A stretch of DNA of 64,000 bases from Armatimonadota bacterium (GTDB lineage: Bacteria > Armatimonadota > UBA5829 > JAUSEB01), in the NCBI GenBank assembly GCA_030649165.1, contig JAUSGG010000058.1, forward strand, positions 1-64,000. Direction: 5' to 3'. Each line of letters starts with the position of its first letter. The stretch's first letter is position 1. The translations under genes and the position numbers were made by a program. The notes below the pieces were generated by a model. It worked only from the letters and a program-made list of their open reading frames with translations, was not told where the DNA came from and searched no databases. Positions 9,356 to 37,737 of this stretch are shown piece after piece.

Positions 9356-9489
9356 CGCTTGACAGAGTTCCTCCCGCGCGGTATATTGCTACTGCTCGCT
9401 TGAACGAACAGGCGCGGGAAAAATTCTTTTTGCATAAGCCCTAAAGAATCTCCACCGCCGCGCCAATAATACTTATAGAGAATAATAGG

Positions 9490-9590
9490 GTGATAAAGGC
9501 AAACTCTTCGAAAGAGGGGGACGCAAAGCCAACGGGACTGATGGATTCCGACTTGTTCGGAACACCAAGTTTGCCAGGCTGCTGCTCTTC
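9490..9590 (+). promoter_or_regulatory. cyclic di-GMP-I (GEMM-I) riboswitch
   Basis: The sequence carries the class I signature: AAGGCAAACTCTTC, a GAAA tetraloop closed by pairing of CTCTTC with GAGGGG, then GGGGACGCAAAGCC, a second hairpin (TTCCGA...TCGGAA), and the far strand GTTTGCCAGGCTGC. In this Rfam family (RF01051) the GNRA loop docks into a receptor in the second helix and c-di-GMP sits in the junction. It lies about 80 bp upstream of the flgM-like start, in the same orientation. A TCTTTTTTTC run at about 9606-9615 follows and could serve in termination, though I see no strong stem in front of it. Confidence 0.85.
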
Positions 9591-32308: not shown

Positions 32309-33292
32309 TTAAAACAACGACAGCGTCTCACGACCTTCTTCATCCTTCTGACTAACAGGAACCGACTGCTCTTCCATCCACTCAAACGGATCGCCCAGGT
32401 CGGAAAAGTCCTCCGGCATGGGGATTGCGCCCATTTTCAGGAGGCGGCGGTTTCCCTCCGGCACGTCGTCTCCGCTGCGGACGAACAACGGCGCCCATCC
32501 TTTCTTGAGGTTCTCGGTGGCGCCCGCCCAGGTTCCACCGGTGTTGTAGTCGGAGCTGACCACTAGGGCGAAGTCCGAGAGCGCGTAAATCAGCTTGTTC
32601 CGCGCCATCGCGTTGCCGATCAGGAAATGCGCCTCCGGCTCGAACGGCGAGATCAGGACCAGCGTGCCCTCGACAACGCCTTCTCTGAACTTCGACACGG
32701 CCTGACGCGCGAGGCTGTCGGACAGGATGCCGACCGAGCTTCCCCCGGTGGTGACGCAGGCGATCATTGCCTCGCTGTCGACTCCGCGGGCCCCGCCTGA
32801 GATCACCTTCACCTTTTGCCGGGCGCACGACTCCGCGACTCCACGCGCGAACGCTACGCCACGCTCGTCGATATTACGGGAGCCGACGATTCCAACACTC
32901 CTGCCCGAGAGCAACCCCGGATCCCCAATGCCGTACAGTACCGGTGGAGCGTTTCCCCTCAGCCGCTCCCTGTATCGCTCCGGATAGGGCTCGTCTGTCC
33001 AACCCAGGACCCAGATGCCCTGAGACTCCCACTTGTCCAGCGCCATCGACAGGGCAAGGCCGCGAGCAAGGAGAGCCCGGACCCGGCCGGCGTCGATGCC
33101 TCCCACCTCGTCCATCCGCTCCGCATTTGCCGCCTCGAACAAATCGCTCGGCTGCAGGCCGTTCTCCTTCAAGACCTTTACAAGGCCCACAAACTCGGTC
33201 GTGCGCAGCGGCGAAGGCCCCTGTTCTCGCTGGGCGAGTTGCGAGGTGAGCAGCAGCGCTGCCTGAGTATCGGCGCTCAAATCATGAGTCAT
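32309..33292 (-). CDS. DprA/Smf-like Rossmann protein, next to RecQ-PRTase
   Basis: 327 residues from ATG 33292, with AAGGGA upstream; TTG 33310, just after the helicase stop, is an alternative. The Rossmann-like core (about 115-290) has DprA features: VGIVGSRN, VISGGARGVDSEA, TLVLISPFEP, GNAMARNKLIYALSDFALVV and GGTWAGATENLKKG. The N-terminal region about 25-85 is helical and the C-terminal winged helix of true DprA is not evident. Chromosomal DprA loads RecA on incoming DNA; this divergent form, tied to a PRTase-bearing helicase gene, resembles the DprA-like partner of ShosTA-type modules. Only two bases separate the helicase stop from the TTG alternative, so both genes share one transcript. 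Confidence 0.8.
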   Translation of the reverse strand: MTHDLSADTQAALLLTSQLAQREQGPSPLRTTEFVGLVKVLKENGLQPSDLFEAANAERMDEVGGIDAGRVRALLARGLALSMALDKWESQGIWVLGWTDEPYPERYRERLRGNAPPVLYGIGDPGLLSGRSVGIVGSRNIDERGVAFARGVAESCARQKVKVISGGARGVDSEAMIACVTTGGSSVGILSDSLARQAVSKFREGVVEGTLVLISPFEPEAHFLIGNAMARNKLIYALSDFALVVSSDYNTGGTWAGATENLKKGWAPLFVRSGDDVPEGNRRLLKMGAIPMPEDFSDLGDPFEWMEEQSVPVSQKDEEGRETLSLF

Positions 33293-33310
33293 TCCTGCGT
33301 TTCCCTTCAA

Positions 33311-35425
33311 TCACCAGACGCTCGCCAGGGCCAACGGAAAGACTTGCCCGCAGCCTCTTGAGCGCAACAGAGCAGCCACGACCGTGAACGTCCATTTCGA
33401 ATCCGTCATATCGTCCACCAGCAGGGCCGGCCCCGGCAAAACGCGCGCATCGTCGAGGTCGAACGCGTCCTTGATGTTGTTCAACTGCTGATGGCTGTTG
33501 TGCATGAGCTTCTGCGGCGCGGTGTCGCGGACCTTCATTATACAGTTTCTGAACCGGATATTCAGCTCTATCGCCAGCCGGCGCGCGAAATCCGGAACCA
33601 GCATGGCCTTGTGCAAGGATGGCACGCACGTGATCCACTCCGGAAAAGGATCGGGTTTCCATCGGGTCCGGACAAGCTCAGCCGCGGCGATAACCAGGTC
33701 CTGACTGAACCGTCCGTCCTGCTGTTTGCCCCGCCTGACCAGGTCGCCCCAGCCCGCGTCGCCCCACATGCACAGCGCTCGGCCCGGCTCGGCCCGCAGA
33801 TTTTCCGACATCTTTCCCTTGTACTTTTCGTCCTCACTTCCCAACGGCCACATCAGCCGCGGCTCGATGATCACGTCCGAGCGCCGGAGGAAAGTGGTGG
33901 CTTCAGCGGCAAGCGCGGTATCGTAGTCCGGAGGCACGAGCGGCCGCCCGGCGCAGGAGGCGCAGATCCCGCACTTGGCGGCGTGCGGATCGTCCAGCTC
34001 ACTCGCCAGAAACCGCATCAGGCAGTCCTGCGTCCGCATGTATTCCTGCATCGTCGCCTGCTCGCGTTTCCGTATGTCGATCAGGCGCTCTACCCTCGCC
34101 GCGTCGAAGGTGAATTCGGTCGCGGTCCTGTGGTACTTGGCCCCTTGTTTGACGATTGGGGAAGGCGATTGCGCTGAGAGTATCGTCATCACCTTCTGGA
34201 CCTGCGCGCCGTTCAGGTTGATGCTCCTCATCATCTGATGAACGGACAACCCGTTCTCCGACCCCTCCAGCGCTTTGAGGACCTCGCCGACGTGCGCTTG
34301 CGGAGGGAAAGCGCTCTGGATGAAGTAGTCGGAAATCTCATCATCCTCGCGCCCACCGAGCAGAATTCCGTAGGCGGAGTCCACGGCGCGGCCGGCCCGA
34401 CCAACCTGCTGATAGTAGTGCACGACTGAGCCGGGCCGCTGAAAATGCACCACGAATCCCAGGTCGGGCTTGTCGAAACCCATGCCCAGAGCGACCGTCG
34501 CGACCAGCGCTTTCAAGTCGTTTTTCAGCAGCTTTTGTTCCAGGACGAGCCTTTCGTCCCTGGGCAATTGCGACTCCTCCGCGTGGTACGCGTGGGCTTC
34601 TATCCCTTTGTGCCTCAGCCATCTCGCTACGCGTTCGGCGTCTCGCACCGTCAGGGTATAGACGATGCCGCTTCCGGGCAGCTTCGGCAGCTTCTCCGCC
34701 AGCCAGGCCATCCTGGCCGCCGGGCTGGGCATGTCGATGTTCTGCAAGCGGAGCGTTTGCCTTGCAAGAGGCCCCCGGATGACCTTGAGGTTCGAACCGA
34801 GTTGGGTGACTATATCCGCTACTACTCGATCGTTCGCAGTCGCGGTTGTAGCCAAAGCCGGAGCGCTGGGAGGAAGACCGCGCAGAATACGTGCGATGCG
34901 CATGTAGTCGGGACGGAAATCGTGTCCCCAGTCTGAGATGCAGTGCGCCTCGTCAACGACGAACAGTCCGACGCGAGGGGCAATTGCGGACAGAACGCGG
35001 CTGACGAAGTCCTCGTTGGCGAGTCTTTCGGGGGAGATGAGAAGGATGTCGATGCCGTCGCTTAGCAGCCGGTCGGTGATCTCGCCCCACCGCTCCGAGT
35101 TCATGGAGTTTATCGTCTCGGCGACTATGCCCAGCCGGCTCGCCGCTTCGATCTGGTTTCGCATCAGCGAGAGAAGGGGTGAGACGAGCAGCGTGGGGCC
35201 CGAGCCGGCCTCGCGGAGCAGCTTCGTGGCAATAAAATAGACAATGCTCTTGCCCCAGCCGGTCCTCTGCACAACGAGGAGCTTGGACTTCTCCAGCGCC
35301 AGGGACTCGATGGCTTCCCATTGCCCGTCCCTGAACTCCGCTTCACTATTGTTCAGCGCGGCCCGCAGATGGAGCAAGCCTCTGTCTCGCAGCGCCGCGT
35401 CCGCGCTTGCCGGCGATTTGTCCAT
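33311..35425 (-). CDS. RecQ-family helicase fused to a ComF-like phosphoribosyltransferase domain
   Basis: 704 residues. SF2 helicase motifs: RTGWGKS at 54-60 (Walker A), DEAH at 158-161, TTATAND (motif III), LVATVALGMGFDKPDLGFVV (V) and QQVGRAGR (VI). A RecQ-type zinc-binding region has C468, C485, C488 and C491. From about 540 comes a PRTase-like domain: WITCVPS near 597-603, then QKLMHNSHQQLNNIKDAF and LLVDDMTDSKWT at 668-679. ComF-type PRTases have DDxxTTGxT there, so the PRPP loop is altered (TG to SK) and activity is uncertain. The partner gene downstream is DprA-like. True RecQ has an HRDC domain at this end, which is missing. Confidence 0.85.
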   Translation of the reverse strand: MDKSPASADAALRDRGLLHLRAALNNSEAEFRDGQWEAIESLALEKSKLLVVQRTGWGKSIVYFIATKLLREAGSGPTLLVSPLLSLMRNQIEAASRLGIVAETINSMNSERWGEITDRLLSDGIDILLISPERLANEDFVSRVLSAIAPRVGLFVVDEAHCISDWGHDFRPDYMRIARILRGLPPSAPALATTATANDRVVADIVTQLGSNLKVIRGPLARQTLRLQNIDMPSPAARMAWLAEKLPKLPGSGIVYTLTVRDAERVARWLRHKGIEAHAYHAEESQLPRDERLVLEQKLLKNDLKALVATVALGMGFDKPDLGFVVHFQRPGSVVHYYQQVGRAGRAVDSAYGILLGGREDDEISDYFIQSAFPPQAHVGEVLKALEGSENGLSVHQMMRSINLNGAQVQKVMTILSAQSPSPIVKQGAKYHRTATEFTFDAARVERLIDIRKREQATMQEYMRTQDCLMRFLASELDDPHAAKCGICASCAGRPLVPPDYDTALAAEATTFLRRSDVIIEPRLMWPLGSEDEKYKGKMSENLRAEPGRALCMWGDAGWGDLVRRGKQQDGRFSQDLVIAAAELVRTRWKPDPFPEWITCVPSLHKAMLVPDFARRLAIELNIRFRNCIMKVRDTAPQKLMHNSHQQLNNIKDAFDLDDARVLPGPALLVDDMTDSKWTFTVVAALLRSRGCGQVFPLALASVW

Positions 35426-35446: not shown

Positions 35447-35477
35447 TATCCCTCCAGGTATGATACCTGGAGGGATA
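35447..35477. repeat. perfect inverted repeat upstream of the helicase gene
   Basis: TATCCCTCCAGGTAT, one base, ATACCTGGAGGGATA: 15-bp arms. A third arm copy, ATACCTGGAGGGATAG, follows at about 35483-35498. It lies 22 bp upstream of the helicase start on the minus strand and could regulate that gene, or it may end the transcript of a neighbour. Same CCAGGT core as 19704 and 22784. Confidence 0.7.
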
Positions 35478-35539
35478 GATCATACCTGGAGGGATAGAAC
35501 TAACAACTAACAACCATCAACCAACAAACCGGCGAAGCC

Positions 35540-36982: not shown

Positions 36983-37423
36983 TCAGCCACCCTTCAACTC
37001 CCGCGGAAGACAAGCGAATCCCTCTTTTGCCGCAGCCTCCCGAAGCCTCTTGTCCAGGCATACGAAGCCGTCGCCCGCCGGATTATGCTCGGTCCACACC
37101 AGCGCGGCGGCAAGCTGAAGAGCGTCAGCGGCCCGAAGAACGTGCAATCGGAGTACGCGTATGGCGGCGGCGCGAACGTGCTCAGCCGGTTCTACCTCGT
37201 CAGCTTCGGAGACGGTCCTGTCAATGCGCGCTAGCAATTCGGTCAGGACACTGTCGTCCCCGGCGCTCTCGCGGACCAGCCGGCAGGCGCCGGACACCAG
37301 TTCCACTCGCGTTCCCCACCACACGACTACCTGCGTGTCTTGGCGAAAGACACCCTCCACGTCGCTTGCGTCACTCTGAGATGTCAGCAAGGATAACAAG
37401 GCGGACGAGTCCCAAAACTTCAT
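36983..37423 (-). CDS. PIN-domain ribonuclease toxin of module A
   Basis: 146 residues. MKFWDSSALLSLL at the start carries the first catalytic Asp of PIN domains; further acidic residues are E41 or so in WWGTRVEL, and DALQLAAAL and DGFVCLDKRL near the end. It cleaves RNA in VapC-type toxins. ATGA overlap: its ATG shares four bases with the stop of the antitoxin gene. It is closely similar in sequence and arrangement to the toxin at 63270-63692. Confidence 0.88.
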   Translation of the reverse strand: MKFWDSSALLSLLTSQSDASDVEGVFRQDTQVVVWWGTRVELVSGACRLVRESAGDDSVLTELLARIDRTVSEADEVEPAEHVRAAAIRVLRLHVLRAADALQLAAALVWTEHNPAGDGFVCLDKRLREAAAKEGFACLPRELKGG

Positions 37424-37710
37424 GTCCGGTCCTCGCGTTCTTCCTCTATGATGCGGCGAATGTCACTCTGCGTCACGTTGATGATGGGCCGGTCCTTGAT
37501 TACGTCTATGCTGACCCGTCCTTTGCCCGGCCTCAGGATGCCACGGCGAACAAGCTCTGAGCGTCTGGCGTCCGCGGGCAGGTCGCCGACCGGCACGATT
37601 CGCGCGACCGGCCTCCCGCGCTCTGTAATCAGAACTTCCTCGCCGCGCTTGACCCAGGCAATATATTCACTCAGGGTTGCTTTTAACTTTGAGACCGCCG
37701 CCGATTTCAT
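37420..37710 (-). CDS. Phd/YefM-type antitoxin of module A
   Basis: 96 residues from ATG 37710, which follows the palindrome-like ribosome site GGAGGGCCTCCC. The start MKSAAVSKLKATLSEYI, then GEEVLITERGRPVARIVPV is the Phd/YefM fold, which binds operator DNA and covers the toxin with its C-terminal tail. An upstream frame could extend it by about 100 residues but lacks any match to this family, so the short form is used. The palindrome at 37738-37754 is likely its operator. Confidence 0.88.
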   Translation of the reverse strand: MKSAAVSKLKATLSEYIAWVKRGEEVLITERGRPVARIVPVGDLPADARRSELVRRGILRPGKGRVSIDVIKDRPIINVTQSDIRRIIEEEREDRT

Positions 37711-37737
37711 AGGGAGGCCCTCCTTACAAGTTGTTAC

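What the first reader, a model, noticed from the sequence alone, without database searches (positions are those of the whole stretch)
32309..35425. RecQ helicase fused to an altered ComF-like phosphoribosyltransferase, paired with a DprA-like protein: candidate defence module
Seen: two adjacent minus-strand genes in one transcript. The helicase carries full RecQ motifs and zinc Cys, no HRDC domain, and a C-terminal PRTase-like domain whose PRPP loop reads DDMTDSKWT instead of DDxxTTGxT. The partner is DprA-like without an evident winged helix. Known: ShosTA pairs a PRTase effector (ShosT) with a DprA-like antidote (ShosA) and acts against phage. Inference: fusing the PRTase to a RecQ motor would give a form in which DNA sensing by the helicase controls the enzyme. 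The gene order could also belong to DNA uptake or repair.
Basis: partly seen in the sequence, partly recalled or inferred. Interest (0 to 1): 0.75.

Follow-up and report, generated by a model that had tools for sequence, protein, structure and literature searches.

The report
PsyrTA (RqlHI) toxin–antitoxin pair
Two neighbouring genes here encode a DNA-unwinding motor fused to a nucleotide-making enzyme, and its DprA-like antidote; they are an ordinary copy of the already described PsyrTA/RqlHI toxin–antitoxin pair, so the find is real but not new.

Summary
[quoted passage not shown] Directly downstream lies a DprA-like gene (32309-33292, 327 aa from its likely ATG) without a winged helix. The pair is already known: the proteins match PADLOC PsyrT (E 3e-283, full length) and PsyrA (E 7.5e-111). 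They are 53% and 43% identical to E. coli RqlH and RqlI, which Russell & Mulvey (PMC4670107) showed to act as a toxin–antitoxin pair whose toxicity needs the PRTase. The residues mutated there are conserved here (K49/D148/D663 = window K59/D158/D672). The 'altered' PRPP loop is not peculiar to this copy: DDxxD[S/T]xW[T/S] is nearly universal in the family, and this genome's own hypoxanthine-PRTase-like protein reads EDIVDTGWT. The PRTase model resembles ShosT (TM 0.57) and ComF (0.54). The pair is patchy (3 of 19 genomes in the order have it) and shares no conserved flanking genes with relatives. Elsewhere it sits inside type I R-M, BREX and Hma operons (5 of 17 loci), but not here. The defence reading is plausible but unproven; one published native-host test saw no phage protection. 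New member of a known kind.

The parts
33311..35425 (-). psyrT/rqlH: RecQ-type SF2 helicase with C-terminal PRTase domain (704 aa); toxin by homology
   Evidence: PADLOC PsyrT PDLC03928 E 3.3e-283 over 18-702; 53% identical to E. coli RqlH; alignment A1
33314..33934 (-). PRTase domain (residues 498-704): PRPP-type loop VDDMTDSKWT at 670-679, hood motif QKxMxNSxxQxxN at 638-650
   Evidence: AlphaFold model pLDDT 95.6; Foldseek ShosT 8zvd TM 0.57, H. pylori ComF 7p0h TM 0.54; profile match to relatives' ComF at 99% probability; PRPP synthetase and PurF profile hits
32309..33292 (-). psyrA/rqlI: DprA-like antitoxin, 327 aa from ATG at 33290-33292 (333 aa if the TTG at 33310 is used); no winged helix
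   Evidence: PADLOC PsyrA E 7.5e-111; Pfam DNA_processg_A E 1.1e-34; AlphaFold pLDDT 89.4; Foldseek DprA 3uqz and ShosA 8zva TM 0.65
35451..35492 (.). palindrome CCTCCAGGTATNATACCTGGAGG plus one further half-site just upstream of psyrT; a copy of a dispersed repeat, not specific to the pair

Best explanation
The locus is a PsyrTA (= RqlHI) toxin–antitoxin module. PsyrT is a RecQ-type DNA motor carrying a ComF-like, HGPRT-loop PRTase as its toxic part. PsyrA is a DprA-like protein, made from the next gene of the same operon, that binds PsyrT and holds it in check. Most likely mechanism: the motor places the PRTase at abnormal DNA. While PsyrA is bound, the enzyme is silent. When PsyrA is drawn off or lost, for example by phage-generated ssDNA or replication damage, the PRTase turns over PRPP and a base. 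This disturbs nucleotide pools or DNA and causes DNA damage, SOS induction and filamentation, halting infected or damaged cells. Shown by homology to E. coli experiments: toxicity needs the PRTase PRPP-site aspartate, the helicase site restrains it, RqlI counters it, and the two proteins bind. Inferred: the substrate, the trigger, and phage defence as the selected function.
For: Full-length PsyrT and PsyrA family matches. Identity of 53%/43% to E. coli RqlH/RqlI, with K49, D148 and D663 conserved. Published genetics and co-immunoprecipitation for RqlHI (PMC4670107). Gene order toxin-then-antitoxin, as that paper reports for all paired genomes. Structural similarity to ShosT and ShosA; ShosTA is described as an anti-phage system in which ShosT is a PRTase/pyrophosphatase disturbing purine pools (PMC12593503). 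Patchy occurrence, 3 of 19 genomes of the order. The pair is shared with relatives without a conserved neighbour gene. Copies lie inside a type I R-M operon (L043, L049), BREX (L045, L115) and Hma (L114). This genome has a separate canonical DprA (C246, 260 bits) and a separate ComF, so the pair is not its competence machinery.
Against: No activity has been measured for this copy. It is not next to known defence genes in the 64-kb window, nor are the six copies of its phylum. PsyrTA of E. coli NILS69 gave no detectable phage protection (PMC12409345). The common E. coli chromosomal copy sits between housekeeping genes gntU and yhgN, as a fixed chromosomal gene could.
Confidence: 0.82

Rival explanations
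1. A DNA repair or replication-fork module: RqlH is a repair helicase whose PRTase is regulatory, and DprA-like RqlI loads or recruits recombination proteins; toxicity appears only when the pair is unbalanced.
For: Actinobacteria keep RqlH without any adjacent DprA, so the helicase-PRTase has a use without an antitoxin. The E. coli chromosomal copy is in a stable metabolic context. The M. smegmatis enzyme is an active helicase without its PRTase (cited in PMC4670107). The window context is metabolic.
Against: Sporadic presence in this clade. Embedding in R-M, BREX and Hma operons. Toxicity mapped to the PRTase. The solo actinobacterial proteins are a separate clade that has lost the hood motif.
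Confidence: 0.2
2. A DNA-uptake (competence) module: ComF-like and DprA-like proteins handling incoming ssDNA.
For: The PRTase domain is ComF-like by profile (99%, E 1e-18) and by structure; the partner is DprA-like.
Against: The same genome encodes a separate ComF with the classical TTG loop and a separate, much better-scoring DprA. The loop is HGPRT-like rather than ComF-like. No competence gene was found among the nearest neighbours examined.
Confidence: 0.04
3. A novel system distinct from PsyrTA, as the first reader proposed (a new RecQ-fused form of ShosTA with a changed active site).
For: Structural kinship with ShosT/ShosA.
Against: Full-length, top-scoring PsyrT/PsyrA matches; placement among paired PsyrT proteins with 100/100 support for its own subclade; loop conserved across the family.
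Confidence: 0.02

Closest known systems
PsyrTA / RqlHI (Sberro 2013 as cited; Russell & Mulvey 2015, PMC4670107; PADLOC PDLC03928/PDLC03927)
   Same: Domain layout, gene order, spacing, experimentally mutated residues, loop DDxxDSxWT, 53% / 43% identity to the E. coli chromosomal pair
   Different: PsyrA lacks the C-terminal HTH of the E. coli copy (reported dispensable for the antitoxin effect); loop position 674 is T instead of the usual V
ShosTA (PDB 8zvd, 8zva, 9vzo)
   Same: PRTase toxin with DprA-like antitoxin; PRTase fold TM 0.57, DprA fold TM 0.65
   Different: The PRTase sits behind a RecQ motor here; ShosT (about 410 residues in the PDB entry) was matched only to the PRTase part; sequence identity about 10%; PsyrA scores far above ShosA models
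DpdF (Dpd 7-deazaguanine DNA system)
   Same: RecQ-like core; two DpdF models also match the C-terminal region
   Different: NCBIfam DpdF 152 bits against a cut-off of 550; no other Dpd hits in the window at 1e-10
Actinobacterial RqlH (M. smegmatis type)
   Same: Helicase + PRTase, same loop
   Different: No DprA partner in the locus; hood residues Q638, Q647, N650 lost

Membership tests
PsyrTA/RqlHI | RecQ-like helicase core with intact Walker A and DEAH | tested here: met
PsyrTA/RqlHI | C-terminal PRTase domain with DDxxD[ST]xWT loop | tested here: met
PsyrTA/RqlHI | DprA-like partner immediately downstream on the same strand | tested here: met
PsyrTA/RqlHI | Full-length match to curated family models | tested here: met
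   PDLC03928 E 3.3e-283; PDLC03927 E 7.5e-111
PsyrTA/RqlHI | Residues K49, D148, D663 of E. coli RqlH | tested here: met
   K59, D158, D672
PsyrTA/RqlHI | Toxicity of T alone, neutralised by A; physical interaction | not testable with these tools
   shown for E. coli in PMC4670107
ShosTA | ShosT: PRTase protein without helicase | tested here: not met
   PRTase fused to RecQ; no ShosT model among the listed matches of P0001
ShosTA | ShosA: DprA-like antitoxin | tested here: inconclusive
   ShosA models match weakly (8e-22, 8e-8), PsyrA far better; fold similar
DpdF | Curated DpdF score | tested here: not met
   151.7 bits against cut-off 550
ComF/DprA competence | Being the genome's ComF and DprA | tested here: not met
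   separate ComF at C41 and canonical DprA at C246
Anti-phage defence system | Clustering with known defence genes in this genome | tested here: not met
   met in other genomes, 5 of 17 paired loci

The most novel reading that the evidence does not exclude
The PRTase in paired PsyrT carries an HGPRT-type catalytic loop (aspartate where HGPRT has its general base) together with a ComF-type hood motif (QKxMxNSxxQxxN). The actinobacterial lineage that lacks the DprA antitoxin has lost the hood motif but kept the loop. This suggests the hood residues determine toxicity or antitoxin contact, and that actinobacterial RqlH was detoxified when its antitoxin was lost. The paired enzyme would then be a 6-oxopurine PRTase guided by a DNA motor.
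Probability: 0.25. Interest if true: 0.5.

Novelty: new member of a known kind. Interest (0 to 1): 0.27.

Why it matters
It extends PsyrTA to an uncultured lineage and shows that the 'odd' PRPP loop is a family trait close to the HGPRT loop, which makes the unknown PRTase substrate a concrete, testable question. The paired/solo contrast offers a natural experiment on what makes the PRTase toxic. The locus itself is otherwise ordinary.

Tried and rejected
Degenerate PRTase: rejected, loop conserved family-wide and close to this genome's own HPRT-like loop EDIVDTGWTL. DpdF: rejected, far below cut-off. Competence operon: rejected, separate ComF and DprA exist. Palindrome upstream of psyrT as a dedicated operator: rejected, it is a dispersed repeat with 86-90 copies. 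Finding ShosT by sequence in phages via the DprA-like partner: only distant DprA hits, so ShosT was reached by structure search instead. Phages carry no full-length PsyrT. The papers of Ordonez 2012 and Sberro 2013 are not held and are cited only through others.

Full report
What is there. Two minus-strand genes abut at window 32309-35425. The first (33311-35425) encodes 704 aa: a RecQ-type helicase core with Walker A GWGKS and DEAH, four zinc-type cysteines, and a C-terminal domain. The second (32309-33310 as listed) encodes a DprA-like protein (Pfam DNA_processg_A, E 1.1e-34). Homologues begin at the position of the ATG at 33290-33292, giving 327 aa and an 18-nt gap.

What it is. PADLOC identifies the two proteins as PsyrT (E 3.3e-283, residues 18-702 of 704) and PsyrA (E 7.5e-111). 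The E. coli chromosomal pair between gntU and yhgN, whose first protein has 698 aa like RqlH, is 53% and 43% identical to the window pair. Russell & Mulvey (PMC4670107) showed for E. coli RqlHI that RqlH alone induces SOS and filamentation, that this needs the PRTase domain and D663, that helicase-site mutants K49A and D148A behave as if the helicase restrains the PRTase, that RqlI counters toxicity without its HTH, and that the proteins interact. They also report that rqlH is always upstream of rqlI and that most Gram-positives carry rqlH alone. They name PsyrT as an RqlH orthologue. The window residues equivalent to K49, D148 and D663 are K59, D158 and D672, all present.

The PRPP loop. Across 42 sequences of the family (18 paired or presumed paired, 24 solo), both aspartates are invariant, W678 is invariant, position 675 is D in 36, position 676 is S or T in all, and position 679 is T or S in all. 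The ComF proteins of the same lineage do have TTG, but a PRTase of this very genome that looks like hypoxanthine PRTase reads VEDIVDTGWTL, almost the same as the PsyrT loop VDDIVDSGWTL of relatives. In HGPRT enzymes the aspartate at the D675 position is known as the likely general base for the purine (general knowledge, not tested here). The profile of the domain finds PRPP synthetases and PurF first among solved structures. So the loop looks functional, not decayed.

Structure. The PRTase domain folds with pLDDT 95.6. Foldseek finds PurF, H. pylori ComF (7p0h, TM 0.54) and ShosT (8zvd, TM 0.57 over 201 columns, the highest query-normalised TM among the listed hits, though at a weaker E-value of 1.7e-3). 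Profile comparison with ComF of relatives gives 99% probability, E 1e-18. The DprA-like protein (modelled as 333 aa, pLDDT 89.4) matches S. pneumoniae DprA and ShosA (8zva), both TM 0.65. So the ShosTA comparison is structurally fair, but ShosT is not known to be RecQ-fused and the family models separate the two.

Distribution. Three of 19 genomes searched in the order carry a full-length PsyrT; the other strong hits match only the helicase part. Among 60 relatives, six have full-length homologues, 53-65% identical. Compared with them, the window shares the pair but no flanking gene beyond weak hits of 24-33% identity (an ABC-type ATPase and one other ORF) that are not conserved neighbours. 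The tree places the window protein with two members of its order (100/100) among paired proteins from many phyla. The proteins of loci without DprA form one mostly actinobacterial clade (97/82).

Context. In other genomes the pair lies between S and R subunits of type I restriction systems (plasmid NZ_OX030731; the same layout in Providencia L049), inside BREX (Acinetobacter plasmid; Akkermansiaceae L115), and next to HmaA/HmaC (Meiothermus L114): 5 of the 17 paired loci taken from plasmids and named genomes. In one E. coli the toxin gene of the R-M version is broken by an IS element. The six relatives of the window's phylum and the window itself show no such neighbours; the window's neighbours are metabolic, with a VapBC-like pair 1.5 kb upstream of psyrT. 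A published test in E. coli NILS69 saw no phage protection from PsyrTA (PMC12409345). Rousset et al. saw T7 and lambda protection by a DprA + PRTase pair and cite shosTA, psyrTA and rqlHI as relatives (PMC9122126).

How it probably works. Shown by homology: toxin, antitoxin, contact, PRPP-site dependence. Inferred: the RecQ motor brings or unlocks the PRTase at abnormal DNA; PsyrA, a DprA-like ssDNA-binding fold, holds it off; loss or titration of PsyrA frees the enzyme, which upsets nucleotide or PRPP pools or DNA and stops the cell. ShosT is described in a review as a PRTase/pyrophosphatase that disturbs purine metabolism and causes DNA duplications and filamentation (PMC12593503), which fits the RqlH phenotype.

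A side result. The paired family has a ComF-like motif QKxMxNSxxQxxN (638-650), present also in the deep-branching paired proteins L114 and L118 in its Q638, N643 and N650 positions. The actinobacterial solo clade has lost Q638, Q647 and N650 but kept the catalytic loop. L058, an early solo branch on a short contig, keeps the motif. Because the solo proteins form one clade, this is a single event and only suggestive, but it points to testable residues.

Verdict. A real, intact PsyrTA/RqlHI module. Interest is low to moderate.

Noticed in passing
35451-35492 and genome-wide: A 23-bp palindrome CCTCCAGGTANNNTACCTGGAGG is dispersed 86-90 times in this genome, 62 in G002, 29 in G017, 13 in G004, 4 in G001 and none in 16 other relatives searched (reversed-pattern control 0): REP-like element of unknown origin.
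   Followed up: partly
9488-9586 (+): c-di-GMP-I riboswitch, 56.7 bits against gathering 35.
   Followed up: no
36983-37725 (-): VapBC-like pair: PIN-domain protein (weak, E 2e-4) with a Phd/YefM antitoxin upstream.
   Followed up: no
L020, L021, L030 (G023, G021, G020): Proteins of 1029-1098 aa that fuse a RecQ helicase to a ComF-matching domain, in the same class as the window's genome; possibly a second, independent RecQ-ComF fusion.
   Followed up: no
L173 (E. coli NZ_CP124405): psyrT inside a type I R-M operon is split by an IS3 element while psyrA and the R-M genes stay annotated as intact, as expected for loss of a costly toxin.
   Followed up: no
L059-L113 (actinobacterial loci): RqlH without any DprA-like ORF in the fetched flanks; hood motif Q638/Q647/N650 lost, loop kept.
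   Followed up: partly
L019 (G054): This PsyrT has lost the zinc-binding cysteines that the other nine aligned members have.
   Followed up: no
G000:C223:38936-39502: A third, divergent DprA-family protein (371-aa frame, 48.6 bits) in the same genome.
   Followed up: no
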